DNA of 47,944 nucleotides from Bacteroidota bacterium (GCA_021845665.1 JAJZVO010000033.1:1-47944); one strand, 5' to 3'; counted from the stretch's first letter, positions 1,423 to 16,914 are shown. Notes: a model not told the origin generated them from the sequence alone. Made by a program: numbers and translations.

Positions 1423-2757
1423 TTATCTAATGAGTACCATTTTCTTCGTCGCTGTTCTGCCATTTACCCTGAGGCGATAGAAATAGACCCCGCTTGGCAG
1501 GTTGGTTGTGTCTAAAGAAATCAGGTGATTCCCTGGACTTTGTACTTCATTCACAAGCGTCTTGACTTCTCTCCCAAGTATGTCATAGATCTTCAATGAG
1601 ACACGACTGACTGCCGAAAGCTGATACCCGATTGCTGTCGATGGATTGAAAGGGTTCGGATAGTTCTGTTCTAACTCGAAGTTCTTGGGAAAAGCGGCGG
1701 TATCTTTTTTGACATGCGTGATCTCCGAAAGCAGCCTCCGCCAGATGCCGCTGCCAGTGCCGGCAAACACATAGCCCCTTAATACGGCAAGAGAGTAAAC
1801 GTTGGCCGAAAGAATGTCGTCAGTTCCCAGATTTGAATTCGCTGAACTCCAACTTTCGCCCAAATTGGTGGAAAGGTAAACACCGTGTAAGTCGGTCCCC
1901 GCGAAAAGATTCCTACCACTCGAAACAAGGGCTTGGATAGCGTAACCAGAATGAGTTACTGAATCGGTAAGACCAGATTCACAGCGTGTCCAACTTACGC
2001 CCCTGTCGGTAGAACAAAACAGGGCACCCGACAATCCTGCGAAAAGATTCGAATCAATAACAGCAAAAGATGTTACCTGCCAGCCATCTGTTGCATGGCT
2101 GGTCTTCGTCCAATTTCCCCCGTTGTTGGTCGAGTAGAAAACTCCACCAAGCCAACTCCCAGCGAACAATGTTGAGCCTATTTTAGCAAACGCGTAAACT
2201 CGTTTGTCCCCGCAGTGGTTTGTCAGTCCGGAATTTGCGGGTAACCACGATGCACCTTGATCAGTTGAGCTGAAGACACCGCCATCCTCACAGCGCAACT
2301 CTCCCGCGTCAACCCCTGCAAAAATGATCGAATCGTCCGCAAAGAGACAGTGTACCTCCCCATTCGACGGATCGAAATTCAACTGTGTCCAATTATCGCC
2401 ATGATCGGAGGATAAGAAAATGCCCTTGTCAGTCCCTGCCAGGAGTTTGTCGCCAATCACAGCGAGACTGAAAACATTAAGAGAATAGATGGTTCCGCTC
2501 AACAGGCCTTTGCTAACGCTAGTCCACGTTGCGCCACTGTCACTCGAGCGAATGACGCTCCGAGGTGCTGCCGTATCCCAGGGGATGTAAACACCTCCTA
2601 TGTGCCCGGCGTAGATGTAGGTGTCATCTTCAGCATAACACCAGACCATATCCCCATCGACTTTCGTCCATTGAGCGCTTGCCACCCGAATATGAAAAAC
2701 AAACAACCATATTAACAACAAATACAACCCCGATATCACTTTAGTTGTGAAGGACAT
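1423..2757 (-). CDS. Secreted BNR/sialidase-like beta-propeller protein with T9SS C-terminal domain
   Basis: The protein has an N-terminal signal peptide (basic start, long hydrophobic stretch, cleavage after VASA). It then carries repeated S(S/T)D.G..W units (SSDSGATW, SSDHGDNW, STDQGASW, STNNGGNW, STDRGVSW) typical of BNR/Asp-box propellers. A C-terminal sorting domain follows (NYPNPFNPST, YDILGREVKTLV, KKMVLIR). Predicted fate is secretion by T9SS and surface attachment or release; the ligand is unknown. I prefer the ATG at 2757 because GAGGTG lies 3 nt upstream (GAGG 5 nt); a GTG at 2763 is the alternative but overlaps that site. The gene directly precedes the subtilase remnant. Confidence 0.85.
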   Translation of the reverse strand: MSFTTKVISGLYLLLIWLFVFHIRVASAQWTKVDGDMVWCYAEDDTYIYAGHIGGVYIPWDTAAPRSVIRSSDSGATWTSVSKGLLSGTIYSLNVFSLAVIGDKLLAGTDKGIFLSSDHGDNWTQLNFDPSNGEVHCLFADDSIIFAGVDAGELRCEDGGVFSSTDQGASWLPANSGLTNHCGDKRVYAFAKIGSTLFAGSWLGGVFYSTNNGGNWTKTSHATDGWQVTSFAVIDSNLFAGLSGALFCSTDRGVSWTRCESGLTDSVTHSGYAIQALVSSGRNLFAGTDLHGVYLSTNLGESWSSANSNLGTDDILSANVYSLAVLRGYVFAGTGSGIWRRLLSEITHVKKDTAAFPKNFELEQNYPNPFNPSTAIGYQLSAVSRVSLKIYDILGREVKTLVNEVQSPGNHLISLDTTNLPSGVYFYRLRVNGRTATKKMVLIR

Positions 2758-3496
2758 ATTCACCTCAAATCTTGTCTTGAAAAGCTTCCATTATCTCGGA
2801 AGCCAATCTTGGATTCACAACAACATCCGCAGCTCCCCTGACGGTCGGAGTGCCGAGGGCCTATGCCATGTGAACTCCGCAAGGACAATCGTGCCATTTG
2901 GACCCACACATCTCCTTGAATCAGCAAGAGAACACTTTGAAAGTAGGTACGAACAATCAAGACCTTCGCAAGAACGGCCGCTCAATTTCAATGGCTTGAG
3001 CTGGATTATCTATTTTCCTCGAAGGCCCACATATGCCCGTGAACTGATCTCGTCAAAAGGTTTCACTCGCTGTCCTCCATTTCGCGAGGGCGGTGGATAT
3101 CAGTCAAAGAGAAAGCGAACACATCGCGAGTATCGATCTCTCGCCCGACTGCGTTCCGGCAAACACACTAATATGCTTTTTCCGCCCCGCCTGCACCACT
3201 GGACGGCCTCAGACTCACACCCAAAAGATAGTCGAAGCTAGAAAAGGTTCATTTCATTTTTCCCATTACCACCTGACAGGAGGGTTATACAGAAAAGAAA
3301 CGTTGTTGTCAAGTCCTCATAGTATCTGCGGGTAAACCTATGCCTCCAGATACAACTGTCTGTCCAGGGTCCTGTATTGTATCGCCTCCGCTATATGCCC
3401 GGGAAGTATGTCGGAGCGGCCCGCTGATCTTCGATATGTATCTCTGTATCTGCGTCTGCCTTCGGCTACAGGCCATTTCGGGTAATGACTCATTTG
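2758..3496. other. Intergenic region without a recognised gene
   Basis: Open frames here on both strands have no family resemblance, no convincing ribosome binding site and arginine/serine-rich noise composition. The first bases hold the ribosome binding site of the minus-strand BNR protein. I see no RNA gene. Confidence 0.5.
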
Positions 3497-3600
3497 GGTT
3501 TCACGCAGAGATCGATGAGTAAGAAAATCACAGAGAACACAAAGGGATTTTAAACTCTTCTCTGCGCACTCTGCGACTACTTTGCGGACTTTGTGTGAAA
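3497..3600. repeat. Intergenic low-complexity repeat of the 'cagagatcacagagaacacaaag' type
   Basis: The text alternates cagag, acaaag and ctctgcg words (TTTCACGCAGAGATCG, CACAGAGAACACAAAGGG, CTCTGCGCACTCTGCG). Related wording recurs at about 6855-6920, 7120-7146 and 33309-33340. Such tracts are common in intergenic DNA of this type of bacterium. Function unknown. Confidence 0.45.
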
Positions 3601-3776
3601 TATCTCGCCCAATATTCAAACTGATTCACTACCTGCTTTCGGGTTACCATAATTTCCGCAGCAGGATACATCTTCGTTATGAGGATGCGCGTCAAATCAG
3701 CACCGAATTCCGCCTTGACCGCCTCGTCGGGGCAGAAAAACCGGTTCAATTTTTCAATTCTTTTGTCCAATTCCAT
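3528..3776 (-). CDS. Possible small hypothetical protein running into a repeat
   Basis: The first ~55 codons read like a charged protein (MELDKRIEKLNRFFCPDEA, then GADLTRILITKMYPAAEIMV). The last ~25 codons translate the intergenic repeat and look like noise. It is divergent from xylB. I do not recognise the family, and no strong ribosome binding site is seen. It may be a small gene whose 3' end was replaced by repeat DNA, or chance. Confidence 0.25.
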   Translation of the reverse strand: MELDKRIEKLNRFFCPDEAVKAEFGADLTRILITKMYPAAEIMVTRKQVVNQFEYWARYFTQSPQSSRRVRREEFKIPLCSL

Positions 3777-3824
3777 CCGACTTTTTATTAAATTAATGGC
3801 AGACTTGAACAGAAGGCTCTCTGA

Positions 3825-5324
3825 ATGTTTACTGTAGGTTACGACGTAGGAAGCTCCTCCATCAAAGCGGCGCTTTATGATACCGAAAGAGGCATCGCCG
3901 TCGCCCAAAGCACATATCCGCAAACCGAGATGCCGATGATCGCGGCTAAGGCCGGCTGGGCGGAACAGGATCCCGAAATGTGGTGGGACGCCGCGAAGAA
4001 CGCGACCCGCGAGGTACTCTCGAAATCATCCGTGAATCCTTCCGACATCAAAGCGATCGGAATCTCTTACCAGATGCACGGGCTCGTTGTCGTCGACAAG
4101 ACTCAGAAAGTTCTGAGGCCGTCGATCATTTGGTGCGACAGCAGGGCGGTTGAAATAGGAGGGAAAGCTTTCGACGCGATCGGTCATAAGAAGTGTCTCG
4201 AGCGGATGTTGAACTCTCCGGGCAACTTCACGGCGTCGAAGCTGAGATGGGTAAAGGAAAACGAGCCGGAGCTCTTCGCGAAGATCGACAAATTCATGCT
4301 CCCGGGAGACTACCTCGCGATGAAACTGACCGGCGAAGCGAGGACCACGATGTCGGGACTGTCGGAAGGGATTCTCTGGGACTTCGTTTCGAATTCCGTC
4401 TCCGACGCGGTACTCTCTCAATACCAGATCGGAAAGAATCTCGTGTCGGATATCGTGCCGACATTCGGCGACCAGGGCGAACTGACAGCTGCCGCTGCAT
4501 CGGAACTTGGACTGAAGACCGGTACGAAAGTGACATACCGCGCAGGCGACCAGCCGAACAACGCGTTCTCTCTCAACGTGCTCGAACCCGGACAGGTGGC
4601 ATCGACAGCCGGGACATCCGGCGTAGTCTATGGAATAAGCGAAGCGATCAAGTATGATCCTGAGACAAGGGTGAATACATTCGCGCACGTGAATCATTCG
4701 AAGGAGAAGAACAGATTCGGGATACTTCTCTGTATAAACGGGACGGGTATTTCGTACAGCTGGATAAGGAAACTTACCGGTAATTCGATCTCTTATTCTG
4801 ACCTCAACTCGCTCGCGGCGGAATCACCTATTGGTTCGAAGGGACTCCGTTTCATTAACTTCGGCAACGGCGCGGAGAGGATGCTCGTCAACAAAGATCC
4901 GGGCGCATCGCTCGAGCGGTTGAACTTCAACATTCACGGCAGAGCGGAGACGGTGCGTTCGGTTCTCGAAGGGGTGGCGTTCTCGTTCAAGTACGGAATC
5001 GATATCATGGAACAACTCGAGATGAACGCGGCGGAAATCAACGCCGGGCATGCAAACATGTTCCTGAGCCCGGTGTTCACGAAAACGCTGGCGACGCTCT
5101 CCGGCGCGACGATCAATATGTACGATACCGACGGGTCTGTCGGTGCGGCGAGAGCAGCCGCCGTCGGGGCTGGAATCTATAAGAGTTTCAAGGAAGCATT
5201 CACGAACCTCAGGAAGATCATGACTGTAGAGCCGGATAAGGGAAATAAGGATGCTTATCTTTCCGCTTATTCGGATTGGCTGGGTTTACTGAATTCAAAA
5301 CTTAAATCAAAGGGTTCAAAATGA
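3825..5324 (+). CDS. xylB: Xylulokinase
   Basis: FGGY-family sugar kinase of 499 residues, the usual length, phosphorylating D-xylulose to xylulose 5-phosphate in the cytoplasm. The N-terminus shows the phosphate-binding [11 protein letters not shown], followed by [13 protein letters not shown] and [10 protein letters not shown]. The catalytic Asp lies in [10 protein letters not shown] (D242), and the C-terminal half has the [11 protein letters not shown] and [16 protein letters not shown] segments typical of XylB. The stop overlaps the xylA start (ATGA), so the two are translationally coupled and make the isomerase/kinase pair of xylose catabolism. Confidence 0.96.
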
Positions 5325-6655
5325 CATTGAAGGTAACGACAGGAGACAAGGAGTTTTTCCCCAGTATCGGGAAAATAAATTTCGAGGGCAAGGATTCGAA
5401 AAATCCGCTTGCCTTCAAATACTATGATCCGGAAAAGGTCGTCGCGGGTAAAAAGATGCAGGATCATTTCAGGTTCGCCGTGGCGTACTGGCACTCGTTC
5501 GGCGAGAGCGGTCAGGACCCGTTCGGACCGAGCGCTCGTGAGCTGCCGTGGCTGAAACACGAAGATCCGATCGGGCGCGCGAAGGAGAAGATGGATGCCG
5601 CGTTTGAGTTCATCACGAAGCTGGGCGCGCCTTTCTATTGCTTCCATGACACAGACCTCGTACAGGAAGGCGAGACTGTTGCCGAGTCGGAAAAAAGGCT
5701 GGCGGCGATTGTCGACTACGCGAAGAAGAAGCAGAAAGAGTCGGGCGTTAAACTCCTCTGGGGAACTGCGAACTTATTTTCGAACATCAGATACATGAAC
5801 GGCGCGGGTACAAACCCGGATTTCTCCGTCGTTGCCTATGCGGGCGCGCAGCTGAAGAACGCTATTGAAGCCACGATAGCCCTCGGCGGCTCCAACTATG
5901 TTTTCTGGGGCGGCCGCGAAGGTTACATGTCGCTCCTCAACACAAACATGAAGCGCGAGCTTGACCACATGGCGGCATTCCTCCAGATGGCAAGGGACTA
6001 CGCAAGGAAACAGGGTTTCAAAGGAACATTCCTCATCGAGCCGAAGCCAATGGAGCCGATGAAGCACCAGTACGATTTCGACGCAGCGGCCGTCATCGGG
6101 TTCCTGCGGCAGTACGATCTGACGAAGGATTTCAAGCTGAACATCGAGGTCAACCACGCCACGCTCGCCTCACACACATTCCAGCACGAGCTCCAGTTCG
6201 CCGCTAATTCAGGCTTTCTCGGAAGCATCGACGCAAACCGCGGCGACTACCAGAACGGCTGGGATACCGACCAGTTCCCGACGAACATCTATGAGCTGAC
6301 CGAAGCTCTCCTCGTCATCCTCGATATGGGCGGTTTCACGACCGGTGGAACGAACTTCGACGCGAAGGTCCGCAGGAATTCGACCGACCTCGAAGACATG
6401 TTTATCGCGCACATCACCGGGATGGACAACTTCGCCCGCGCGCTTCTAACGGCGGCGAGAGTCCTGAGCGAGACCGATTACTCGAAGCTCCGCAAGCAGA
6501 GATACGCCTCGTTCGATTCCGGCAAGGGCGCCGATTTCGAGAAAGGCAAGTTGAAACTGGAGGATCTTCACTCCTACGCTTCGAAGAACGGCGAGCCGAA
6601 GAAGACGAGCGGTAAGCAGGAGCTCTTCGAGTCGTTCATAAACCAGGTGCTGTAA
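5321..6655 (+). CDS. xylA: Xylose isomerase
   Basis: Converts D-xylose to D-xylulose. The 444-residue length fits the longer group II enzymes. Visible motifs are [14 protein letters not shown], the catalytic FHDTDL (H109, D112), [27 protein letters not shown] with the metal-binding Glu, [18 protein letters not shown], and GSIDANRGD. It overlaps xylB by 4 bp. A diverged copy of its last ~26 codons reappears 300 bp downstream, fused to an antitoxin start. Confidence 0.97.
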
Positions 6656-6699
6656 GCCCGGGATGATTAGTTTCACCGCTAGGACTTTCCCAGAAGCAC

Positions 6700-6812
6700 C
6701 CGTCATTGCGAGTCCCGGTCATGCGAAGCATGATCGGGACGTGGCAATCCGCTATTTTGTGGTTTCGTTTAGGGGATTGCTCCGCCACTTCGTTCCTTGC
6801 AACGACTGGTTC
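6700..6812. repeat. Palindromic intergenic repeat (CGTCATTGCGAG type)
   Basis: Starts with CGTCATTGCGAG and contains an inverted repeat at 6712-6740 (13-bp arms with one mismatch, GTCCCGGTCATGC against GCATGATCGGGAC). It continues with GTGGCAATCC and, further on, the complementary GGGATTGC, ending near TTGCAACGAC. This matches the widespread cgtcattgcgag...gtggcaatcc class of bacterial palindromic repeats. It folds as RNA and may act as the xylBA 3' structure. Confidence 0.6.
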
Positions 6813-6948
6813 TTACTCCTATGATAACCTCCCATATTGCCCCATTCCATATTAACGGACGGGAGACGCAGAGACACTATGAGTTTACCAGTCTTTGATC
6901 TCTGCGTCTTCTTGCCTCGGTGGTTATATTTGGTGGAGAGGACTTGAA

Positions 6949-7101
6949 GTGAATATATTCACGTATAGCGAGGCGAGGCAGAAACTGGCCAAGTTGCTGG
7001 ACAAGGCAAAGAAGGAAGGATATGCTCCCAGGAACGGCGAGCCGAAGAAGACCAGCGGCAACCCATAGCTCTTCGAGTCGTTCATTAATCAAGTATTGTA
7101 A
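6949..7101 (+). pseudogene. Chimeric scar: Phd/YefM antitoxin N-terminus fused to a second xylA 3' end
   Basis: From GTG 6949 the frame reads MNIFTYSEARQKLAKLLDKA, the typical N-terminus of Phd/YefM antitoxins, up to about codon 24. From codon 25 it reads [13 protein letters not shown] and, after a TAG at 7066-7068, [10 protein letters not shown] and TAA. That is the C-terminus of XylA in the same frame (xylA has [16 protein letters not shown] before [10 protein letters not shown]). The two xylA tails differ at many synonymous sites, so this is an old or foreign copy rather than a fresh duplication. No toxin gene follows. Non-functional; a recombination scar. Confidence 0.75.
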
Positions 7102-7310
7102 TCCCCGGCCAACAAGTCTTACCGCGAAGACGCGGAGGCGCAAAACTGCTCTCATTGCTTCCCCCGCTCTTTTCTGCTTCTGAAATGAAAACCTCTTTTA
7201 CTTTTCGCAAATAGTCTGGTAATACTATTGAGTCGTTAACTGCAAGCGGGACGTTCCTGCCGGGTTTGCACGTCAGCGCCAGGACATAACCAGACTTCGA
7301 GGTTCGTGAT
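7102..7310. other. Intergenic DNA with repeat words
   Basis: Begins with a short tract of the ccgcgaagacgcggaggcgcaaaac type. The remainder up to the small minus-strand ORF shows no gene or clear terminator. It is the 3' flank of the minus-strand peptide cluster. Confidence 0.4.
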
Positions 7311-7406
7311 CTATTTGATGAGAACCTTCAAGGCTATGTATGTTACGAAAGAAATAATGAACCACCGGACGAATTCTCTCAGATACGGCGATTTTATTTT
7401 ATTCAT
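7311..7406 (-). CDS. 31-residue small membrane protein, copy B
   Basis: A 31-codon ORF whose ATG overlaps the MauE-like stop as ATGA, which argues for real, coupled translation. It has a basic, proline-containing N-terminus (IKSP at 4-7, REFVR at 10-14) and then one hydrophobic stretch (about 15-30) ending in Lys. It matches the small ORF at 12834-12929 at 16 of 31 positions with equal length and no gaps. I do not recognise the family. A single-pass membrane peptide with the N-terminus in the cytoplasm is inferred. It is the last gene of the cluster. Confidence 0.7.
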   Translation of the reverse strand: MNKIKSPYLREFVRWFIISFVTYIALKVLIK

Positions 7407-7900
7407 TGCCATCCTCTTACTCGTTTCGCAAGTCCTGTTTGACTCTTCAATTTCATCAGCTCGTCGATACTCCATCTCTGCGTTTTTACCGTCGAAAGCC
7501 AGGTTGCTACCGAAAATAAAAAGAAATCTCTCGCTACTGAGGTGAGGCCAATATTTTTGCGGACGACGGATCCGAAGCATCCGCAAGCACCCCTGTTCCC
7601 TCGTATGATCTCGACTACGACGGCGATTAAGAAGATCAGAGAAAGAAATGAAAGGACCGCCGCAGAGAGTCTGCTGAAGAAGCCTGCGGCGAGGGAGAGG
7701 CCGAATGAAATCTCTGCTGAGACAACTGCAATTGCGAATGCGGGGACGAGACGTAATGGCACGATATCGTACGCAGAGATGGTGAGAATGAAGCCGTGCA
7801 TTGAAGCGGCTTTCAATATTCCAGCAGCGGCGAATATGGCGCCGAGCAGCACTCTGGCCGCAAAAGCGACGGCATCCCGTTTTGATTCTCCGCCGGGCAT
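7403..7900 (-). CDS. MauE/DoxX-like redox-associated membrane protein
   Basis: A 165-residue protein with four hydrophobic segments (about 11-33, 51-74, 78-99 and a shorter one near 122-135) and the family-typical CGC pair in GNRGACGCFGS (C106, C108). MauE-type proteins support cysteine oxidation or reduction in the periplasm, usually with a thioredoxin-like partner. Such a partner is encoded in the same cluster at 12219-12743. It starts 10 nt after the Yip1-family gene and is coupled to the downstream 31-residue ORF. A role in redox handling of the two-cysteine peptide is inference. Confidence 0.8.
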   Translation of the reverse strand: MPGGESKRDAVAFAARVLLGAIFAAAGILKAASMHGFILTISAYDIVPLRLVPAFAIAVVSAEISFGLSLAAGFFSRLSAAVLSFLSLIFLIAVVVEIIRGNRGACGCFGSVVRKNIGLTSVARDFFLFSVATWLSTVKTQRWSIDELMKLKSQTGLAKRVRGWQ

Positions 7901-7910
7901 ACGGTAACCG

Positions 7911-8624
7911 TCAGTTCATCGGATGGAAAGGTGAGCCGTTCGATACGGCGCTCATCACCATCTGGAAGGCAATTCCGAGAAGCCAGACTCCAGTAACCAC
8001 GAAAGCCGACTTCAACTTGCGGTAGCCGGTTATGACAGAAACGCCGATCGTCAGTGTGGCGAGATACCAGATCGTGAAAATATTGATGCTGTTCAGGAGA
8101 ATGAAAAGCGGCAGGTCCGACCTCTTGTTTTTCATAAAAAAATCCAGTCCGACTATCGCCTGCAAATCGGTGATGTGCTGCACGGCTCCGATTCCTTTCA
8201 GGTACAAAACAAGAACGTTCACCACGCTCATGAAAAGAAGTATCATCTCTGAGTAGGCCACTATTGAAAAGACCGTTCTGTATTTGAATTCAGGAGGTGC
8301 ATCGAGAAGGATGCATGTAAAATAAAGGAGGGCGGCAAGGAATCCCCATTTGATCAGCAAGACGATCGGGACAAAGAGCAATCCTACGTACTCGAAGCGT
8401 TCCGAAAGTGCCAGCGCTCTGACGGCTTCTTGGGCACTTAACTTGCTCAAGAGCATATGGTAGGCAATTTGATTTGAGAATGGCAACATGAACCATGCGA
8501 GGAGAAGCGAGAGTGTCGATACTGTTATGAAGGCAATGAGCCATCTTGGCCGTTCCTTCAAATCCAGGAAGACGTCTGTCGGAGTGGCAAAAACGTTCAC
8601 AAGATTCGACAGCTTCAGAGCCAT
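7911..8624 (-). CDS. Yip1-family integral membrane protein
   Basis: A 237-residue protein with about five to six membrane segments. The N-terminus NVFATPTDVFLDLKERPRWL is the familiar opening of bacterial Yip1/DUF1282-type proteins (F..P...F..L...P.W). It overlaps the ABC ATPase gene by 10 bp, so it is part of the exporter unit. Function in bacteria is not settled; here it may be an accessory membrane subunit of the transporter or an immunity-type protein. Both are guesses. Confidence 0.75.
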   Translation of the reverse strand: MALKLSNLVNVFATPTDVFLDLKERPRWLIAFITVSTLSLLLAWFMLPFSNQIAYHMLLSKLSAQEAVRALALSERFEYVGLLFVPIVLLIKWGFLAALLYFTCILLDAPPEFKYRTVFSIVAYSEMILLFMSVVNVLVLYLKGIGAVQHITDLQAIVGLDFFMKNKRSDLPLFILLNSINIFTIWYLATLTIGVSVITGYRKLKSAFVVTGVWLLGIAFQMVMSAVSNGSPFHPMN

Positions 8625-9400
8625 GACAACTTCTTTTTTTCCTTTCGCTCTCCGTCTTTCGAGACAACGTCGATGAAGATCTCTTCCAGGGACTGATACG
8701 TTTCCTGGCTCACCTCGTCTTTGATCTTCTTCCGGATATCTTCGGTCCTGGATTGAAAAACTAGCTTGCCTTTGTTGATAATTGCGACCTCGTCACAGAG
8801 CTTTTCGACAGTGTCGAGATTATGAGAACTCATAAAAACAGATTCGCCTTTATTGACTATTCTTCTGAGCATATCCTTAATTTGTTTGGCGGAGGTGGGG
8901 TCAATTCCTTCCAAAGGTTCATCCAGGATTAACAATCTAGGTTGATGAATAACGGCAGCAGCGAGAGAGACTTTCTTCTTCATCCCCGCAGAAAACGATT
9001 CTATCATTTCTTTTTTCTTTTCTTCCAGATCGAGGAAAGCAAGCAATTCATCTACTCTCGCGGCAGCTTCTTTAGGAGGGATGCCGTACATTGCGGCGGC
9101 AAAGTTCAAGTATTCCCTGCTGGTAAGCTTATCGATGTAGTATGGGGTTTCCAGAACGAATCCGACATCTCGCTTGTATTCGTAAGCGGTTGAACTGATT
9201 TCATTTCCAAAGAGTCGCACCTCTCCTTTGTCCTTTTTCGCTAGCCCGGCGAGGATTTTTATCGTCGTAGATTTTCCCGCACCATTTGGTCCTACGAAAC
9301 CGAACAATGTTCCCTTTTCAACGCTTAGATTGAGGTCACAAAGTGCTTTTACGTTTACGCGGTATGATTTTTCTAAACCGATTAGTTCTATTGCCTTCAT
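8615..9400 (-). CDS. ABC transporter ATP-binding protein
   Basis: A 261-residue single-domain ATPase. Walker A is GPNGAGKST (37-45). The signature is a slightly unusual ESFSAGMKKKVSLA (SAGM in place of SGGQ). Walker B is LLILDEPLEGIDP, and the switch His is in MSSHNLDTVE. It is of the ABC-2/drug- and peptide-exporter type. The start overlaps the permease stop (ATGA) and the end overlaps the Yip1 gene, so the three are translationally coupled. The substrate is probably the peptide encoded upstream in the same cluster. Confidence 0.92.
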   Translation of the reverse strand: MKAIELIGLEKSYRVNVKALCDLNLSVEKGTLFGFVGPNGAGKSTTIKILAGLAKKDKGEVRLFGNEISSTAYEYKRDVGFVLETPYYIDKLTSREYLNFAAAMYGIPPKEAAARVDELLAFLDLEEKKKEMIESFSAGMKKKVSLAAAVIHQPRLLILDEPLEGIDPTSAKQIKDMLRRIVNKGESVFMSSHNLDTVEKLCDEVAIINKGKLVFQSRTEDIRKKIKDEVSQETYQSLEEIFIDVVSKDGERKEKKKLSWL

Positions 9401-10932
9401 GTGGGGTCCTCGAGCAATGTCTGCATTTCACTCGACACTTTTGCGGCCCATGCTGGTATCAACCATACGTATGTCGGGAGAAACAAACCTAACACAAAAA
9501 ATGGCAGCAGAGCCGATCCTAGATAGAGGATAAAGGCATAGACAGCCGCTGCTGCGAACTCAGCAGGCAAGATCAGAAGAATCGCGACTGCTGGACCCCT
9601 CAACGCCTTTCTGGAGGAGAGAGCAAGAGTATTTTCAAGTTGGACGAGCACAAGCGGGAGACAGATTGAATATCCCGCTCCATAAGCCAGTTCAGAGGCA
9701 GGCGGTCTCAAGAGTATTCCGACGGCCGCAACGATCGAAAGGTTTGCAAGAGAAACAAGGCTCCATGCCGATATAGTCTTAACCAGGACAAACCTTTTCA
9801 CGTTGAATGGGAAAATTGCAAGATGTTTAAGGCGCAGGCCGTGTTTGCCGAGGTGTCCTTCTGTAATCTGAAAACCCAGAATTTGAGTGACAAAGAAAAT
9901 CGCTAACATAACGTAACCGAATCGATACTGGAGATGAGAAGACGCCTTCGCTAAGAGAATAACTATCATAACAGGAAGCAGCGGAAAGACGAAGAAGAAC
10001 TTCTCTTCTTTCTGGAGTATTTTCCACTCTAAGGAAATAAGAGAGCTTGTCTTTTGTGAATAGACCTTCGTCCCATCGGTTATATGCCCAATTAAGCCTT
10101 CTTGTCTTGAGCTCGCAATATTCGTTAGGGATGAATTTGATCTTTGCTTTGCGGAGGTCCTCTTCATGCCGCCCAAGGACGACGAGAGTCGAAAATGGAG
10201 AGCGGGTCTATCTAACAGCGAGTCTGCCACCAGAGTCGCCGCTGCTAAAGCGACAAACAGAAGGGCGAGGCGAGTGATTTCAAGGTATGCCGTGCCGATG
10301 GACAGGGTGAGAATACCCTGAAACCCGCCGACAAATTCGGATACGACCGGCAGATTCCCGCTCCCTCCAAATTTTACATGCATAAGACTCAGGGCAAGAT
10401 ACGGCACGAAAAGCAGAACGCTTACAACATCCGTGACAGTCCTTACCCCGAACCGATGCGATAGCGCTTTAAGGATAAGAAACAACATGAAGAAGATTTC
10501 TGAAATCACAAGATAGGTGAAAGCGAAAAGTAGGGGTACAACAATTGCGAGCAGAGCACCCATTCTCATCCAAACACTTATGAAAGCACAAAGCATTGGG
10601 AGCGCGTACAGAATCATCCTCTTGTCGGCCGTGAACAATAAAAAGCGAACTGAAACAGAACTCATGCGAGATAAGGGGAACACACTTAGTGCATAACCAT
10701 CGAGAATTGTATTAACCTGGCGAAGTCGGGCATTAACAAATACATATTCATAAAGCAGGAGAAAGCCGATGAACATTCCTGAAAGGTGTCGTTCATTTGT
10801 AACGACTGATGCCAATAGCAATCCCGAAAGGACTATCCCCATAAGAGTGACCAACGCATACGACAGGACGGGGCTTGGAGTTTCTCTCCCCGACGCTGCG
10901 AGGTTGGTTTTTATTGCGATACTCAGATTCAT
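9397..10932 (-). CDS. ABC-2-like exporter permease
   Basis: A 511-residue very hydrophobic protein with two halves of about six membrane segments each. They are separated by a polar loop near residues 245-310 rich in Ser/Lys (GGMKRTSAKQRSNSSLTN). It is coupled to the ATPase by ATGA. No peptidase domain is present, which fits with the C39 peptidase being encoded separately upstream. It is separated from the peptide gene by a perfect stem-loop. Family assignment rests on topology and context rather than a sharp motif. Confidence 0.8.
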   Translation of the reverse strand: MNLSIAIKTNLAASGRETPSPVLSYALVTLMGIVLSGLLLASVVTNERHLSGMFIGFLLLYEYVFVNARLRQVNTILDGYALSVFPLSRMSSVSVRFLLFTADKRMILYALPMLCAFISVWMRMGALLAIVVPLLFAFTYLVISEIFFMLFLILKALSHRFGVRTVTDVVSVLLFVPYLALSLMHVKFGGSGNLPVVSEFVGGFQGILTLSIGTAYLEITRLALLFVALAAATLVADSLLDRPALHFRLSSSLGGMKRTSAKQRSNSSLTNIASSRQEGLIGHITDGTKVYSQKTSSLISLEWKILQKEEKFFFVFPLLPVMIVILLAKASSHLQYRFGYVMLAIFFVTQILGFQITEGHLGKHGLRLKHLAIFPFNVKRFVLVKTISAWSLVSLANLSIVAAVGILLRPPASELAYGAGYSICLPLVLVQLENTLALSSRKALRGPAVAILLILPAEFAAAAVYAFILYLGSALLPFFVLGLFLPTYVWLIPAWAAKVSSEMQTLLEDPT

Positions 10933-10997
10933 GGAATTGTCTCGCTCACCAATCCAATTCTTGGTTCCTCAATTGCACTAAGCAGACTTTCGTTAAT

Positions 10998-11024
10998 GCC
11001 AAGGGTGGTCTTCCCACCCTTGGC
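10998..11024. terminator. Perfect 11-bp stem-loop between the peptide gene and the exporter genes
   Basis: Arms GCCAAGGGTGG and CCACCCTTGGC with a 5-nt loop (TCTTC). There is no U-run on either strand, so it is not a classic terminator. Placed after the Gly-Gly peptide gene and before the permease gene, it could slow transcription or protect the 3' end of the upstream mRNA. It may also be a member of the short palindromes seen elsewhere in the window. Confidence 0.45.
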
Positions 11025-11043
11025 CCAAGGAAGACACCGCGTT

Positions 11044-11271
11044 CTAGACAGGCGACGGGATGCAAGCAGCGGCTATTCCGAATCCGCCGCTTGCTATGAT
11101 CGAGGCTGCCGCCCCCCAACCAAGGGGACCTGTCAGCGCTGCTCCAATGAACCCGAAGCCAACAGCGGCCAGACCTAGTGCGCATCCCAATGTTCCACCG
11201 GCTATTGCCAACATCTCGGTGTTGGTAAGTTGGAGCGTAGCAGACGGTCGACTGGGCCTCGCCGAAGCCAT
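11044..11271 (-). CDS. Double-glycine-leader, two-cysteine bacteriocin-like peptide precursor (frame possibly broken)
   Basis: From ATG 11271 the 75-residue product has a leader part with TNTEMLAIAGG (Gly25-Gly26), the classic shape of a C39-cleaved leader. The predicted core is 49 residues, rich in Gly/Ala and aromatic, with only two cysteines, near its ends (C30 and C70; core positions 4 and 44). A C39 peptidase, thioredoxin-like and MauE-like genes and an ABC exporter are in the same cluster. There is no Shine-Dalgarno for this ATG. A strong one lies 50 nt further up ahead of a different frame that reads as a Sec signal peptide. The gene may therefore be frameshifted or start differently. 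Class II bacteriocin-like is inferred from shape; I know of no close relative. Confidence 0.65.
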   Translation of the reverse strand: MASARPSRPSATLQLTNTEMLAIAGGTLGCALGLAAVGFGFIGAALTGPLGWGAAASIIASGGFGIAAACIPSPV

Positions 11272-11331
11272 GTCGTCAGCACTATCATGAGCACTAAGAT
11301 ACCTGAGAGTATCTTCTTCGTGTTTACCTCC
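11272..11331 (-). other. Orphan Shine-Dalgarno plus signal-peptide frame ahead of the Gly-Gly peptide
   Basis: GGAGGT (11331-11326) is followed 4 nt later by ACG (11321-11319) where ATG would be ideal. Reading on gives KKILSGILVLMIVLTT, a textbook Sec signal core. One extra base near 11273 would join it in frame to MASARPSRPS and the Gly-Gly leader. So either the ancestral precursor began here with a Sec signal and has lost its start codon and one base, or the sequence has two errors. A GTG at 11333 in the same frame is another possible start. Confidence 0.5.
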
Positions 11332-11460
11332 ACTTGTTCTTGGTGATTGTTTAGTTTAGCATTCTTGCTCACTCCGGCCTGCCTGTCTTTCGCAGACCTG
11401 GAAAGCACGGTGCGGCGGCCGAACCGCATCATACATCCGCATCCGCAATCGACAGTCCAG

Positions 11461-11477
11461 TCCCGACAAAGCCGGGA
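11461..11477. repeat. Short palindrome TCCCGACAAAGCCGGGA
   Basis: 5-bp arms with a 7-nt loop inside the 190-bp gap between the 28-codon ORF and the peptide precursor. The rest of that gap holds an open frame (to 11528) that I regard as non-coding. It belongs to the same style of palindrome as those at 16915-16934 and 44177-44193. Confidence 0.35.
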
Positions 11478-11524
11478 TCCTTTCGGATGAGCAAGTTGTG
11501 CGCGCACAAACTCCTTCATTCTCA

Positions 11525-11611
11525 TCATTCATTGCCGGTTTTTTGTCTATTTCTCCATTCCAGGAATGAAAAAGAGATTGTCAGCCCGACTATGAACGCT
11601 CCATGAATCAT
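11525..11611 (-). CDS. 28-residue putative small membrane protein
   Basis: ATG follows directly on the TAG of the C39 peptidase gene, with GGGAG about 11 nt upstream, inside the peptidase C-terminus. The product has a hydrophobic first half (MIHGAFIVGLTISFSFLEW) and a polar basic tail (RNRQKTGNE). Not related by eye to the two 31-residue paralogues. Its coupling and hydrophobicity support a real micro-ORF, but the length allows chance. Confidence 0.4.
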   Translation of the reverse strand: MIHGAFIVGLTISFSFLEWRNRQKTGNE

Positions 11612-12229
11612 CTAATTGTTTCTCCCTTTCTTGAACACAAGTGTTTCCCCGTTCCATATCTTCCGGAAATTAACGAGGCTCATTTCTACCTTTCCGAGAG
11701 CGGGGTCGGAGAGGACGATATCTCCGTCCCGCGTAACACTGTCGGCCACGACGAAATGATCGCCGCGAACGAAGACTATTGCCGGCATCGGCGCCTTAAC
11801 GAAGTCTTTGATATTGTATATCCAGCCATCCGCGCCTAGACCTTTCGTCTCGGCCATCTCTTTGAGAGACAACATGCTCGAGCCTTTGGCGGTTAACCCG
11901 ATATGTCTGTCGATTTCGGATAAGGTTGAACGAATTCCGTAATGATCGAAAATCATTTTCAGCGACGCGGGCCCGCAGTTGTTTGGCATGGTTTGCATGG
12001 TTACTCCGTTCGTGCCGAGGTACCTAGCGCCGATCCACCAGGCCGAGACTTCGCCGAACGAGTTGGGTGAAGTCAGCACATATGCCGCGCCCGCAAGAAC
12101 CGCCGCAAAAAGCAAAAGGGCCGACAGCCCTGCGGCTGCCAAGAGTTTTCTTCGTCTTGAAGATGTCTGCCTTTCGAGCACTCCTGTCAAAGGACTTTCC
12201 TCCGGCAATTGGCTGGTTTCATCTTTCAA
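11612..12229 (-). CDS. Membrane-anchored stand-alone C39-family peptidase
   Basis: A 205-residue protein. The N-terminal basic stretch SSRRRK precedes one membrane helix (about 28-52), which by positive-inside logic puts the rest in the periplasm. The domain then shows the C39 triad: Cys85 in MPNNCGPASLKMIF, His158 in RGDHFVVAD and Asp175 in LSDPALGK. C39 peptidases cut after Gly-Gly leaders and are usually fused to ABC exporters; this one is separate. The start is TTG at 12229, overlapping the thioredoxin-like stop by 11 bp. The likely substrate is the TNTEMLAIAGG precursor 340 bp downstream. Confidence 0.88.
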   Translation of the reverse strand: MKDETSQLPEESPLTGVLERQTSSRRRKLLAAAGLSALLLFAAVLAGAAYVLTSPNSFGEVSAWWIGARYLGTNGVTMQTMPNNCGPASLKMIFDHYGIRSTLSEIDRHIGLTAKGSSMLSLKEMAETKGLGADGWIYNIKDFVKAPMPAIVFVRGDHFVVADSVTRDGDIVLSDPALGKVEMSLVNFRKIWNGETLVFKKGRNN

Positions 12230-12743
12230 TGCGATGTTTTTCTCCCATGAATGCTTCTATGGATCGATCTAGTATGCCGGGCCTGACTTCCCCCAACACT
12301 TCGTTTCTCAGGACGAGATTGCTGTCGACAAGAAATGTTACAGGCACCATAGATATCCCGAACGCCTTTTCAATTTCTCCATTGGTGCCGACATACACCG
12401 GGAACGATACGCGGCTTTTCGAAACCAGCTCTCTTGTTGTGTCGGGCTTGCTCATCGATAGGCCGGCGAAATGAAGAACATCGCCATATTTCTGCTTCAT
12501 CGCGCTGAATACCGAAAGCATCGCGATGCAATGAGGACATTCAGCACTGAATATAATGAGAACGCTTCTTTTGTGAATGAAACTACCGCTGGTGATTTTC
12601 TTCCCGGCAAGACTTGTCAGGTTGATTCGTGGGATGGTCTTCCCAATGGGAAGCGGTTTGACGTCTATGCTCGCATGAAGATAAGTCAAGACAACGACGG
12701 GTATCGCAATAATTACTACTAACGCAACCAAGAAGCGATCCAT
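12219..12743 (-). CDS. TlpA/AhpC-like thioredoxin-fold protein, membrane-anchored
   Basis: A 174-residue protein with an N-terminal membrane anchor (about 4-22) and a periplasmic thioredoxin-fold domain. The active site is FSAECPHCIAML (C69, C72) and the cis-proline is in ISMVPVTFLVD. CPHC is the DsbA-like dipeptide, which favours oxidising chemistry. AAGGAA sits just before the ATG. It is coupled to the C39 gene. A role in making the C30-C70 disulfide of the cluster peptide, with the MauE-like protein as partner, is inference. Confidence 0.85.
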   Translation of the reverse strand: MDRFLVALVVIIAIPVVVLTYLHASIDVKPLPIGKTIPRINLTSLAGKKITSGSFIHKRSVLIIFSAECPHCIAMLSVFSAMKQKYGDVLHFAGLSMSKPDTTRELVSKSRVSFPVYVGTNGEIEKAFGISMVPVTFLVDSNLVLRNEVLGEVRPGILDRSIEAFMGEKHRIER

Positions 12744-12833
12744 TTCCTTCCGGGGAGATGTAAAGACGGACTCGGATCAATGGTCGTCTCGAAGATATCG
12801 ACTGGCGCTGCAATAGTCTGAGAGTCGTGGGCT

Positions 12834-12929
12834 TCACTTCACGAGGAAATGAATGGTTAAGTACATTCCCAATGTAATTATGAACATTCTGACAAACTCT
12901 CTGAAGAAAGGCGATTTTATACGGTACAT
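12834..12929 (-). CDS. 31-residue small membrane protein, copy A
   Basis: Starts 2 nt after the stop of the lipoprotein gene, with GGAG inside that gene's last codons 7-8 nt upstream of ATG. The product has IKSP (4-7), REFVR (10-14) and FII (16-18), then a hydrophobic stretch with Tyr23 and a final Lys31. It is identical to copy B (7311-7406) at 16 of 31 positions without gaps. Conservation at the protein level, with different synonymous codons, argues that both are real genes. Family unknown. Confidence 0.72.
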   Translation of the reverse strand: MYRIKSPFFREFVRMFIITLGMYLTIHFLVK

Positions 12930-12931
12930 TT

Positions 12932-13837
12932 CTACTCTCCTTCTCTGGAAGAATTTAACAAAAGCGATCTTCCAGGCAAATCATTTGCTCCGTATTGCGC
13001 ATACGTCAAATACTGCCAAATGTCTGTAATGGCCTGGCCGGCAGATCCGCCGAGAGCGCCAGCGGTCGCGCCCGCACCGGCGCATGCACCCAGCGTCAGT
13101 TCCGCACACCCTGTTGCAATAGCGCCGAGCGCTCCCGTGACGGCTCCACCGACGTCCGCTCCGACGATTGGACCGATTGCTCCTCCAATCCCCGAGCCAT
13201 TTCCTGATCCGGGCGGTTCCGTCGGCACTTTAACAGAATCCACTACATCGACTCTTTGATTGCTGTTTGTTGCTGAGAGCGCTTCCTCCCAGTTTTGGTA
13301 ATTTGCAGCCCAGTAACTGGCTGAACTTTGAGCAACCGAAGCCACCATCAGGACGATGGCGGAACTGTCCGGTCCGAGTGTGTTGTACGCTTGTTCTTCT
13401 ATAGTATTCAGGGAAAAGAAAAACTGTGCCGAATCCTGTGCTGATAACGAATCGACTAATGTGTATATGTTCCTGATGTATCCCATTTGTTCACTGGACA
13501 GGGAGCCGGCCGACACCGAACTGACTTTCAACTTACTTGGATGGAACGGTGCCTCAGATGCGGTTATAAACTGGCTTATTGACAGTTCGCCTTGTCCTTT
13601 GCTCTGTAGGAACGTGATGCCATAGTTCTGAACATCACTCAAAAGGCTTCCTTCACTAGCTTTTGACGCGACTGATATGCCACTGCGCGTCAATCTCTGG
13701 AAAATGTAACTCAATCCTTCGTTATGCTCCTGCCCGACGTATGAGTAGAGATTCTTGAATTGCCGCTGGTTGTTTGAAACCGGGTTGGCCCCGCGTTCGG
13801 AACATGATTGGATGATAAATGAAGTTGAGATCATCAT
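12932..13837 (-). CDS. Lipoprotein with C-terminal glycine-zipper, two-Cys tail
   Basis: A 301-residue protein with a lipobox-like IIQSC (Cys12) and a GQEHNEGL segment (35-42). A helical-looking middle follows, then, after a PPGSGNGSG linker (about 208-216), a tail of about 60 residues made almost only of Gly, Ala, Ile and Val with two cysteines (C244, C252). That tail resembles membrane-inserting glycine zippers. The signal sequence from ATG 13837 is short; the frame stays open upstream with RWVALT but no start codon. It heads the minus-strand cluster. It may be a second effector or an accessory or immunity lipoprotein; function unknown. Confidence 0.7.
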   Translation of the reverse strand: MMISTSFIIQSCSERGANPVSNNQRQFKNLYSYVGQEHNEGLSYIFQRLTRSGISVASKASEGSLLSDVQNYGITFLQSKGQGELSISQFITASEAPFHPSKLKVSSVSAGSLSSEQMGYIRNIYTLVDSLSAQDSAQFFFSLNTIEEQAYNTLGPDSSAIVLMVASVAQSSASYWAANYQNWEEALSATNSNQRVDVVDSVKVPTEPPGSGNGSGIGGAIGPIVGADVGGAVTGALGAIATGCAELTLGACAGAGATAGALGGSAGQAITDIWQYLTYAQYGANDLPGRSLLLNSSREGE

Positions 13838-14472
13838 TGTAAGGGCAACCCATCTAGCGCTGAGTATGTCTATCGTATGTGTCTGAATCTCTACCGCCCC
13901 ATATTGGTTTTCTTTGCTGCCTCTTTCATACTGAAGATCAGGAAAGCACCTCTAAATTCAAGTCCGCACTTTCGGACGCAACTCGCGATCGTTACAACCA
14001 GACTCGTTGAATTAGTTCGTGCGAGATCAGGTGTGTCCCCGCTGTTAATTTCGCAAACATGTGCAGCCAGCATCACTATGCCTTCCTTCGCAGCTGAATC
14101 TAACCTGATTCTACGTCCGGATGGCGGTTACCCTGCTTAAATGTTTTCCCTGTCTTCTTGTACTACCGCCAGCACTTTGCTGTACTATTGCTTTTCGAGA
14201 TTATAGCTCATTTGTATTGATATATCAAGAGGCAGAACAAAATTCTTACGGTGAAACTTAACATCCCCTTGATGAGGTGATTGTGCCATGATGTCGTGAG
14301 GATAGCAGGCTTGCAAGCTCAGATTGTTTTTCCAGGACAATCTGATTATCATGGTTCAGAGGAGACGGGAACGCCTCGCGTTCGCATTACGAATCGTTTG
14401 TTTCTCAAGTACAAATAACATCCGAAGGATTATGAATCAGCCTGCCGAACCTTCGGGAAAGGAAGCTGCCTC
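13838..14472. other. Divergent intergenic region
   Basis: Lies between the minus-strand peptide cluster and the plus-strand metalloprotease gene, so it should hold promoters for both. I see no convincing -35/-10 pair. A 61-codon minus-strand frame at 13891-14076 has no family resemblance. AAAGGAAG before 14473 is the metalloprotease ribosome binding site. Confidence 0.5.
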
Positions 14473-16914
14473 ATGAAAAAGTCTCTTACCCTGCTCTTTG
14501 CTTTTCTGATGCTTTGCGGAATTTCGTTTGCCCGGTCGTCTGCATCATCATCGTTCCCCACAATACGGGAAAAGACTGCCGGCATGAAAGAATATCCCGG
14601 CTATTTCACATTCTACTGGGACGCGAAGGAAGGAAAAATCTGGCTCGAAATCAGCAGGTGGGACAAGGAGTTCCTCTATGTGAACACGCTGCCGCACGGC
14701 GTCGGCTCAAACGACATCGGCCTCGACAGGGGACAGATAGGCAACGAGCGAATTGTGGAATTCGTCAGGAGCGGCCCGAAGGTGCTCCTTCTCCAGCCGA
14801 ACCCTTCGTTCAGAGCAACGAGCGGGAATGAGATGGAAAAGATGGCGGTAAGAGAGGCCTTCGCACAGTCGGTCCTGTGGGGCTTCGATGTCGCTGCGAA
14901 AAGCGGGGACACGGTTCTCGTCGACGCGACCGGATTCCTCCTGAGGGACGCGCACCACGTCATCGAAACTCTGCGTGATGAGAAACAGGGAAACTACAGG
15001 CTCGATCCGGGCAGGTCCGCGATATACATGCCGCGGACAAAGAATTTCCCCGACAACTCCGAGTTCGAGGCGATCGTAACGTTCGTCGGAGATAACCCTG
15101 GAAGATGGGTGGAACAGGTCGTGCCAAGCCCGGACGCGATCACCGTCCATGTTCATAATTCGTTCATAAAACTTCCCGACGACGGTTACGTTCCTCGCGA
15201 GTACGATCCGAGGGCGGGATACTTCGATATACATTACATGGACTTCTCGGCGCCGCTCGGCGAGCCGATTCACAAGAGAGTCATCATCCGTCATTGGCTC
15301 CAGAAGAAGGACCCGAATGCTGCGCTCAGCGAGCCGGTGAAACCGATCGTTTACTACGTCGACCCCGGCGCCCCGCGCCTGATACGCGAAGCCCTCATAC
15401 AGGGCGCAAGCTGGTGGAACAAAGCCTTCGAGGCGGCTGGCTTCAAGAATGCGTTCATTGTCAAGGTCCTCCCCGACAGCGTCGATCCGATGGACATCAG
15501 ATATAACGTCATACAGTGGGTCGACCGCTACACGAGAGGCTGGTCTTACGGAGAATCGATAGTCGACCCGAGGACCGGCGAGATAATTAAAGGTCAGGTC
15601 ACGCTCGATGCGCTGCGTGCGAGACAGGATTACCTGATCGCGCAGGGACTCCTCGCTCCGTATGCGAAAGGAAAGAACGACTCCGCGGCGATCGAAGATT
15701 TTGTCCTTGCGAGGATACGCCAGCTCGCCGCGCACGAGACCGGACATACACTCGGGCTCTGCCACAATTTCGCCGCCAGCACCGACAACCGCGCGTCCGT
15801 CATGGACTATCCTGCGCCGCTCGTTAAGATCGACAAGGACGGGAAGCTCGATTTGTCCGACGCTTACGCGACAGGTATCGGGAAGTGGGACATAGACGCT
15901 ATCAAGTACGGCTACGAAGAATTTCCAAAAGACACGAATGAAAAAGAGACGCTGAATAAGATCGTCGAGCAGCGGATAAAGAGCGGCATACCGTTTCTTT
16001 CAGACGAGGCCGCTCGTCCCGCCGGAAGCGCGAGTCCGATAGCGCATCTCTGGGACAACGGCTCGAACGCCGTCGATCAGCTCAATCACGTCATGAAAGT
16101 CCGCGCCATCGCCCTGAAGAATTTCGGCGAAGATAACATACGAGTCGGGGAGCCGCTGGCCCACCTTGAAGATGTGCTCGTGCCTATTTACATGTTCCAC
16201 CGCTACATGGTTGTTGCCGCGTCGAAGGTCCTCGGCGGACTGAACTACACTTACGCGGTAAGAGGCGACGGTCAGATTCCCACGACGATGGTTCCGCCTG
16301 CCGAGCAGAGAACCGCGCTCACTGCGTTGCTGAACACCATCAGGCCTGAAACCCTCGCGCTCCCGCAGAGCCTGCTGAAACTTATCCCGCCCCAGCCAGA
16401 CGGCTACATGAGGACGAGAGAGGACTTCAAGGGGAAGACCGGCGTGACGTTCGATGCACTCGCGCCGGCGAGAGCCGCGGCTCAGCTTACCGTCAGCCAG
16501 TTACTAAATCCCGAGCGCGCCGCGAGGTTGATGGAATATCACGCGGAGAATACCGAGTACCCCGGTTTTAATGAGGTGATTGAGAAGCTGGTCGAATCCA
16601 CTTGGAAGACCGACCCGCAAAGCGGTTACCTTGGCGAGATTCAACGTGCGGTCGACAACGTGGTATTGAACAACCTAATGAGACTGGCCGATGATGCCGG
16701 AGCGTCGGAACAGGTGAGGGCGGTTGCTTATTACCAGATTGAAAACCTCAGGAACTGGATACAAGGGCGCGTATCGACCGCAAAAGATCAAGACCTCGTG
16801 GCCGAGTACATCTACTCGTTATCGCAGATCCGGCAATTCCAGGAACATCCGGAGAAGTTCAAAGTGCCTGCGCCTGTGGTTCTCCCACCAGGCGATCCGA
16901 TAGGAGAATATTAG
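14473..16914 (+). CDS. Secreted zinc metalloprotease (DUF5117/DUF4953-like metzincin)
   Basis: An 813-residue protein with a Sec signal peptide (basic MKKS, hydrophobic core, cleavage near SFA). The zinc site is HETGHTLGLCHN starting at His421, the extended HExxHxxGxxH of metzincins, followed by a Met-turn-like SVMDYPAP. N-terminal and C-terminal regions match the layout of the large DUF5117-DUF4953 exported proteins common in Bacteroidota. Substrate unknown. A single gene, with a hairpin pair immediately after its stop. Confidence 0.9.
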   Translation: MKKSLTLLFAFLMLCGISFARSSASSSFPTIREKTAGMKEYPGYFTFYWDAKEGKIWLEISRWDKEFLYVNTLPHGVGSNDIGLDRGQIGNERIVEFVRSGPKVLLLQPNPSFRATSGNEMEKMAVREAFAQSVLWGFDVAAKSGDTVLVDATGFLLRDAHHVIETLRDEKQGNYRLDPGRSAIYMPRTKNFPDNSEFEAIVTFVGDNPGRWVEQVVPSPDAITVHVHNSFIKLPDDGYVPREYDPRAGYFDIHYMDFSAPLGEPIHKRVIIRHWLQKKDPNAALSEPVKPIVYYVDPGAPRLIREALIQGASWWNKAFEAAGFKNAFIVKVLPDSVDPMDIRYNVIQWVDRYTRGWSYGESIVDPRTGEIIKGQVTLDALRARQDYLIAQGLLAPYAKGKNDSAAIEDFVLARIRQLAAHETGHTLGLCHNFAASTDNRASVMDYPAPLVKIDKDGKLDLSDAYATGIGKWDIDAIKYGYEEFPKDTNEKETLNKIVEQRIKSGIPFLSDEAARPAGSASPIAHLWDNGSNAVDQLNHVMKVRAIALKNFGEDNIRVGEPLAHLEDVLVPIYMFHRYMVVAASKVLGGLNYTYAVRGDGQIPTTMVPPAEQRTALTALLNTIRPETLALPQSLLKLIPPQPDGYMRTREDFKGKTGVTFDALAPARAAAQLTVSQLLNPERAARLMEYHAENTEYPGFNEVIEKLVESTWKTDPQSGYLGEIQRAVDNVVLNNLMRLADDAGASEQVRAVAYYQIENLRNWIQGRVSTAKDQDLVAEYIYSLSQIRQFQEHPEKFKVPAPVVLPPGDPIGEY

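What the first reader, a model, noticed from the sequence alone, without database searches (positions are those of the whole stretch)
7311..12929. Two paralogous 31-residue membrane peptides (7311-7406 and 12834-12929) near the two ends of the cluster
Both minus-strand ORFs are 31 codons and align without gaps at 16 identical positions (IKSP 4-7, REFVR 10-14, FII 16-18, Tyr23, Lys31), with different synonymous codons. One is coupled to the MauE-like gene by ATGA; the other sits 2 nt after the lipoprotein gene with a GGAG site. This is strong internal evidence for a real, undescribed micro-protein family that gene callers would miss. Immunity, transporter accessory or a two-component pore are possible roles.
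Basis: seen in the sequence. Interest (0 to 1): 0.8.

Follow-up and report, generated by a model that had tools for sequence, protein, structure and literature searches.

The report
Tiny membrane immunity-peptide candidates, duplicated pair
Two duplicated 31-residue membrane peptides in a Bacteroidota bacteriocin-like gene cluster are real, conserved genes, and one of them sits in the slot where relatives of the neighbouring lipoprotein carry small, mutually unrelated membrane proteins, which suggests that they protect the producer from its own membrane-active toxins.

Summary
P1 (7311-7406 -) and P2 (12834-12929 -) are 31-codon ORFs, 16/31 identical without gaps, far above chance. They are protein-coding: against an intact copy in a sister species, pN/pS is 0.23-0.39 in the stated frame only. 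The family is small: found in 3 of 13 species of the window's genus and in no other genome searched. One further copy is frameshifted; another has no ATG.

The neighbourhood gives the best clue. The lipoprotein just upstream of P2 belongs to a phylum-wide Bacteroidota family without Pfam or NCBIfam model (lipobox Cys, GxxHNxxL, SVAxxSxxYW, Gly/Ala-rich C-terminus). In 16 of 21 loci its downstream neighbour is a small membrane protein, from 13 mutually unrelated groups, against 12 of 93 control genes. A conserved protein with swapped small membrane neighbours is the pattern of toxin and immunity. P1 sits after MauE in a cluster for a Sec-secreted, C39-processed, two-cysteine peptide; its orthologues keep that place.

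Best reading: P1 and P2 are paralogous single-TM self-protection peptides (P2 for the lipoprotein, P1 for the peptide). This is inferred; no toxicity or protection has been shown. In the window the peptide precursor itself looks broken.

The parts
7311..7406 (-). P1: 31-aa single-TM micropeptide, last gene of the cluster
   Evidence: orthologue L006:8001-8096 (77% aa) and L010:15263-15349 (39%), all after MauE
12834..12929 (-). P2: paralogous 31-aa single-TM micropeptide directly behind the lipoprotein gene; candidate immunity peptide
   Evidence: P2-type frameshifted copy in G012
12932..13837 (-). Lipoprotein with GxxHNxxL motif and Gly/Ala-rich two-Cys C-terminus; candidate toxin paired with P2 (no ATG further upstream although its signal peptide looks short)
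   Evidence: family alignments A4/A5; no Pfam/NCBIfam model; AlphaFold helical bundle plus C-terminal hydrophobic helices, pLDDT 67
12219..12743 (-). TlpA/ResA-like membrane-anchored thioredoxin (CPHC)
   Evidence: Pfam AhpC-TSA 4e-12
11612..12229 (-). Stand-alone membrane-anchored peptidase C39 (double-Gly leader peptidase)
   Evidence: Pfam Peptidase_C39 9e-28
11044..11331 (-). Two-Cys hydrophobic precursor peptide with double-Gly leader; in the window the signal-peptide start is ACG and a 1-nt frameshift separates it from the core
   Evidence: comparison with intact G012 and G009 genes
9397..10932 (-). Multi-TM protein, probably the ABC permease (variable part of the cluster; no Pfam match)
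   Evidence: 20-31% identity between relatives; hydrophobic, overlaps the ATPase gene
8615..9400 (-). ABC transporter ATPase
   Evidence: Pfam ABC_tran 1e-29
7911..8624 (-). Yip1/YknW-like membrane protein
   Evidence: Pfam Yip1 3e-14; NCBIfam YknW_fam 9e-18, below its cut-off
7403..7900 (-). MauE/DoxX-like redox membrane protein; its stop overlaps the start of P1 (ATGA)
   Evidence: Pfam MauE 5e-21

Best explanation
P1 and P2 are paralogous single-pass inner-membrane micropeptides that protect the producer from membrane-active toxins made from the same locus. P2 is the immunity peptide of the lipoprotein directly upstream (12932-13837), whose Gly-rich two-Cys C-terminal helices would be the membrane-active part. 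P1 is the resident protection peptide of the secreted two-Cys peptide system (signal peptide, double-Gly leader cut by the membrane-anchored C39 peptidase, disulfide made or kept by TlpA/MauE, removal or export by the ABC/Yip1 unit). Likely mechanism: the basic N-terminus (IKSPxxREFVR) stays in the cytoplasm, the 15-17-residue hydrophobic helix sits in the inner membrane and caps or breaks up inserted toxin helices. Shown: coding, conserved, gene positions, duplication, membrane-type sequence, recurring small-membrane-protein neighbours of the lipoprotein family. Inferred: toxicity of lipoprotein and peptide, protection, topology, mechanism.
For: (1) In 16 of 21 loci of the lipoprotein family across Bacteroidota the next gene on the same strand, starting -17 to +112 nt from the lipoprotein stop, is a small membrane protein of 31-140 aa; the crude control gives 12 of 93 (Fisher p = 3e-8, or 8e-7 after collapsing related neighbours). 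(2) These neighbours form 13 groups without detectable similarity to each other, while the lipoproteins keep lipobox, GxxHNxxL and SVAxxSxxYW: one conserved protein, swapped small membrane partners, as in polymorphic toxin/immunity pairs. G083 even has a single-TM 34-aa ORF of the same build, unrelated in sequence, in that slot. (3) Some genomes carry the pair in tandem with different partners (G083, G163). (4) G012 has no lipoprotein gene, and its P2-type copy is frameshifted, while its P1-type copy is intact. (5) P1 orthologues stay with the peptide cluster in three species with exactly 15 residues after the motif, but the second MauE/Yip1/TlpA cluster of G012, with another kind of precursor, has none. 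(6) Precedent: CdzI, a small TM protein, is the immunity protein against glycine-zipper toxins in Caulobacter (PMC5380434); SitA lipoprotein toxins are followed by SitI immunity genes (PMC5562445).
Against: No toxicity or protection has been shown for any member. P1 and P2 occur only in one genus. P1 lies in the part of the cluster that is shared between species (MauE 81%, Yip1 78%, P1 77% window/G012) and not in the swapped permease part, which also fits an accessory of the shared machinery. The window's precursor peptide looks broken, so P1 would now protect against nothing made here, unless from kin. 5 of 21 lipoprotein loci have no small membrane neighbour (two have an outer-membrane-type protein instead). 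The control set is crude.
Confidence: 0.5

Rival explanations
1. P1 (and by descent P2) is a small accessory subunit of the shared maturation or export machinery: it stabilises or regulates MauE, Yip1 or the ABC transporter, as CydX, KdpF or AcrZ do for their complexes (from general knowledge).
For: Strict position after MauE, with ATGA overlap in the window; divergence tracks MauE and Yip1 (77/39% against 81/45% and 78/65%); length and C-terminal Lys fixed.
Against: The homologous MauE/Yip1/TlpA cluster in G012 (L037) has no such peptide; there the ATGA slot holds an ABC exporter. It does not explain why P2 sits behind the lipoprotein in the slot that other genomes fill with unrelated membrane proteins.
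Confidence: 0.27
2. P1 and P2 are themselves secreted leaderless bacteriocin-like or two-peptide pore components.
For: 31 aa, net charge +4 to +5, hydrophobic C-terminal half; two copies in a bacteriocin-type cluster.
Against: No leader, while the cluster has a separate precursor with signal peptide and double-Gly leader matching the C39 peptidase. P2 lies where other genomes have multi-TM proteins that cannot be peptides of this kind. Both have strongly conserved basic N-terminal motifs typical of membrane anchors kept in the cytoplasm (inference).
Confidence: 0.1
3. The peptides are relics: a remnant of the N-terminal helix of an ABC exporter that once followed MauE, kept by chance.
For: In G012 cluster 2 an ABC exporter starts with the same ATGA overlap after MauE; one copy in G012 is frameshifted, the G009 copy lacks a standard start codon, the window precursor is broken.
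Against: pN/pS well below 1 in the coding frame in three comparisons; no detectable similarity to the exporter N-terminus.
Confidence: 0.08

Closest known systems
Cdz system of Caulobacter (CdzC/CdzD glycine-zipper toxins, CdzI immunity; PMC5380434)
   Same: Gly-zipper hydrophobic toxin candidates, small membrane protein as partner
   Different: CdzC/D are 84-86 aa and leave by type I secretion; CdzI has three TM segments. Here the candidate toxin is a 300-aa lipoprotein or a Sec-exported peptide and the partner has one TM; no sequence relation is claimed
SitA/SitI lipoprotein toxin-immunity cassettes of myxobacteria (PMC5562445)
   Same: Lipoprotein with shared N-terminal region, variable C-terminus, cognate gene directly downstream, tandem cassettes
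   Different: The SitA toxin domains described there are nucleases and delivery needs outer-membrane exchange (TraA); here the C-terminus is Gly/Ala-rich helices and the downstream genes encode membrane proteins
Bacteroidetocins (PMC6671954)
   Same: Bacteroidota Cys-containing peptide with double-Gly leader, thiol oxidoreductase, double-Gly peptidase
   Different: Their peptidase is fused to the ABC transporter, the leader is 15 aa without signal peptide, the cluster has a five-TM protein and no immunity gene was found; here C39 stands alone and the precursor has a Sec signal peptide
SDP cannibalism toxin and YknWXYZ of Bacillus (PMC4887032, abstract only; SDP details from general knowledge)
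   Same: Sec-exported disulfide peptide toxin; Yip1/YknW-type membrane protein with an ABC unit giving protection
   Different: Known SDP immunity protein SdpI is a multi-TM protein; our Yip1 scores below the YknW cut-off

Membership tests
Polymorphic lipoprotein toxin with downstream immunity gene (SitAI-like arrangement) | Lipoprotein signal with invariant Cys | tested here: met
   Cys invariant in 20 of 20 aligned members; the window copy has only 11 residues before it from its first ATG
Polymorphic lipoprotein toxin with downstream immunity gene (SitAI-like arrangement) | Gene directly downstream, varied and mutually unrelated between loci | tested here: met
   16 of 21 loci with small membrane protein, 13 unrelated groups
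Polymorphic lipoprotein toxin with downstream immunity gene (SitAI-like arrangement) | Toxic C-terminal domain and cognate protection | not testable with these tools
   needs expression experiments
SitA family proper | Sequence homology to SitA N-terminus and delivery by TraA/B outer-membrane exchange | not tested
   no SitA or TraA/B comparison was run; only the architecture resembles it
Cdz glycine-zipper bacteriocins | Small toxin exported by type I secretion with three-TM CdzI immunity | tested here: not met
   lipoprotein of about 300 aa with lipobox, partner of 31 aa with one hydrophobic stretch; no type I secretion genes seen between 7300 and 14000
Bacteroidetocins | 42-aa peptide after a 15-aa double-Gly leader plus C39-ABC fusion | tested here: not met
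   precursors of 88-105 aa with Sec-type signal peptide, stand-alone C39
Known small-protein families (Pfam, NCBIfam, PADLOC) | Score above the curated cut-off | tested here: not met
   P1: only ATP-synt_I, 15.3 bits against cut-off 25.1; P2: none

The most novel reading that the evidence does not exclude
Bacteroidota carry a phylum-wide, uncharted class of surface lipoprotein toxins (lipobox, GxxHNxxL, SVAxxSxxYW, Gly/Ala-rich membrane-active C-terminus), each protected by its own fast-changing small membrane immunity protein. P1/P2, at 31 residues, would be among the smallest dedicated immunity proteins, with one peptide family serving both the lipoprotein and a Sec/C39-processed two-Cys peptide.
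Probability: 0.4. Interest if true: 0.78.

Novelty: new variant of a known kind. Interest (0 to 1): 0.58.

Why it matters
If right, a widely distributed Bacteroidota lipoprotein family without any family model becomes a testable candidate for interbacterial toxins. Its immunity proteins are 140 residues or less and can be as small as 31, so some would be missed by gene callers; that would help explain why Bacteroidota bacteriocin clusters can seem to lack immunity genes (none was found for bacteroidetocins, PMC6671954).

Tried and rejected
Wider search for P1/P2 relatives in 391 class and 395 phylum genomes: only scattered hits near E 0.002-0.01, several with stops inside, treated as chance. 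One scan of GTDB genome contigs found only the G012 record. Plasmid and phage records: no match. PDB profile search: only 10-14-residue matches, best a designed protein, judged chance. Descent from the ABC exporter N-terminus: no alignment. Structure of the lipoprotein: first model too poor (pLDDT 47); with 20 sequences pLDDT 67, helical bundle 20-188 and hydrophobic helices 218-241 and 249-282; Foldseek found nothing with E below 1.5 and VIA-align nothing above Z 4.7, which for helical bundles says nothing. Rfam on 6600-14600: none. A two-component pore of P1 and P2 was considered and rejected for lack of any sign of secretion.

Full report
WHAT IS THERE. They share 16 of 31 residues without gaps. 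The end-to-end BLOSUM62 score of 84 compares with a maximum of 41 in 200,000 shuffles. P1 begins with ATGA overlap at the MauE stop; P2 begins 2 nt after the lipoprotein stop, behind a GGAG site. The window's genome has no third copy.

ARE THEY GENES? Yes, by comparison. A congeneric MAG (G012; record JAJZNW010000031.1; locus L006) has an intact copy, P3 MYRIKSPYLREFVRWFVTVFVTYIALKLFIK, shortly after its MauE gene. Between P1 and P3, pN is 0.12 and pS 0.54 (p = 3e-4); P1-P2 0.28/0.71; P2-P3 0.30/0.82. The signal is strongest in the stated frame, which alone has no stops in every pair; antisense frame 1 shows a weaker echo and carries stops. A third species (G009, L010) encodes IKPPALSEKVRAFVAALAASLILYFLAK about 50 nt after its MauE stop, with the same motif and exactly the same 15 residues to the C-terminal Lys, but no in-frame ATG, GTG or TTG near it. 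G012 also has a frameshifted copy directly after MauE that is of P2 type (76 of 98 nt identical to P2; 58 of 99 to P1, 64 of 104 to P3). So the duplication is older than the split of window and G012, and copies can die. No relative was found outside this genus.

THE CLUSTER. In transcription order: lipoprotein, P2, TlpA-like thioredoxin, stand-alone membrane-anchored C39 peptidase, precursor peptide, permease-like multi-TM protein, ABC ATPase, Yip1/YknW-like protein, MauE, P1. The precursor in G012 and G009 has a Sec-type signal peptide, a double-Gly leader and a hydrophobic two-Cys core. Between window and G012 the permease is unrelated (21%), and nucleotide similarity resumes inside the ATPase gene and runs through Yip1 and MauE into the micropeptide at 81%. 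P1 therefore lies in the shared part of the cluster. P2 and the lipoprotein are an extra block that G012 and G009 lack.

WHAT P2 SITS NEXT TO. The lipoprotein has no Pfam or NCBIfam model but has relatives across Bacteroidota. Aligned members keep the lipobox Cys, GxxHNxxL, SVAxxSxxYW and a Gly/Ala-rich C-terminus. A 20-sequence AlphaFold model of moderate quality shows a helical bundle followed by two long hydrophobic helices; no fold match was found. In 16 of 21 loci the downstream neighbour is a small membrane protein of 31-140 aa; the same rule applied to 93 other long ORFs gives 12 (p = 3e-8). The 16 neighbours form 13 groups without similarity to each other. Two loci have an outer-membrane-type protein instead, one a 350-aa protein, one a 190-aa secreted protein, one nothing. 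G083 has a single-TM 34-aa ORF, MDEKKKVIFFKIIIRSILQGILIGVVVTLAYKFS, in this slot.

INTERPRETATION. A conserved surface protein with a variable C-terminus, followed by swapped small membrane proteins, is best read as toxin plus immunity. P2 fills that slot. That G012 lacks the lipoprotein and has lost its P2-type copy while keeping the P1 type fits a specific tie of P2 to the lipoprotein. P1 would by homology have the same kind of job for the peptide made by the cluster; the absence of a P1-like peptide from G012's other MauE/Yip1/TlpA cluster argues against a general role with MauE. The mechanism (an inner-membrane helix that blocks inserted toxin helices) is inference. The main rival is an accessory subunit of the shared machinery.

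COMPARISON WITH WHAT IS KNOWN. It works most like Cdz (small membrane immunity against glycine-zipper toxins; PMC5380434) and is arranged like SitA/SitI (lipoprotein toxin with immunity gene downstream; PMC5562445), but it is not filed under either: the size, export route and partner build differ from Cdz, and homology to SitA was not tested. The peptide half resembles bacteroidetocin clusters (PMC6671954) in having a double-Gly leader and a thiol oxidoreductase, but the signal peptide and the stand-alone C39 peptidase set it apart.

CAVEATS. Nothing here shows toxicity or protection. The control for small membrane neighbours is crude: ORF-based, and from eight loci. The window's precursor lacks the ATG (ACG) and has a 1-nt frameshift relative to both intact relatives, and the lipoprotein's first ATG leaves an unusually short signal peptide; real decay or assembly error cannot be told apart here.

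VERDICT. The micro-protein family is real but narrow. The larger point is the lipoprotein family and its small membrane partners, a probable new variant of toxin-immunity systems.

Noticed in passing
window 11044-11340 (-): The precursor peptide gene has ACG in place of the ATG seen in G012 and G009 and a 1-nt frameshift between signal peptide and double-Gly leader.
   Followed up: partly
window 11307-11461 (-), L006:3913-4069, L010:11043-11168: The non-coding stretch between C39 and precursor is more conserved (87% nt window/G012) than the flanking C39/TlpA genes (70%) and in G012/G009 holds an inverted repeat (TTGCTCACTG / CAGTGAGCAA in G009); no Rfam match.
   Followed up: partly
window 8615-10932 (-) against L006:4399-6564: Permease and 5' part of the ATPase gene are swapped between species while the 3' part of the ATPase, Yip1 and MauE stay 81% identical in DNA: cassette-like exchange with a breakpoint inside the ATPase gene.
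   Followed up: partly
window 6959-7100 (+): Remnant of an antitoxin-like gene fused to a second copy of the 3' end of the xylose isomerase gene ([14 protein letters not shown], one stop inside).
   Followed up: no
L037 (G012:C132) 2178-10463: A second, related cluster with MauE, Yip1, TlpA, ABC exporter, a subtilase-like protein with a P-loop C-terminal domain, acyl carrier protein, formyltransferase-like protein and a 61-aa Gly-rich two-Cys peptide (names from reading the sequence, not from a family search).
   Followed up: no
window 12932-13880 (-): The lipoprotein's first ATG leaves only 11 residues before the lipobox Cys; the open frame and the family profile run further upstream, where a codon ATA lies at a fitting start position.
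   Followed up: no
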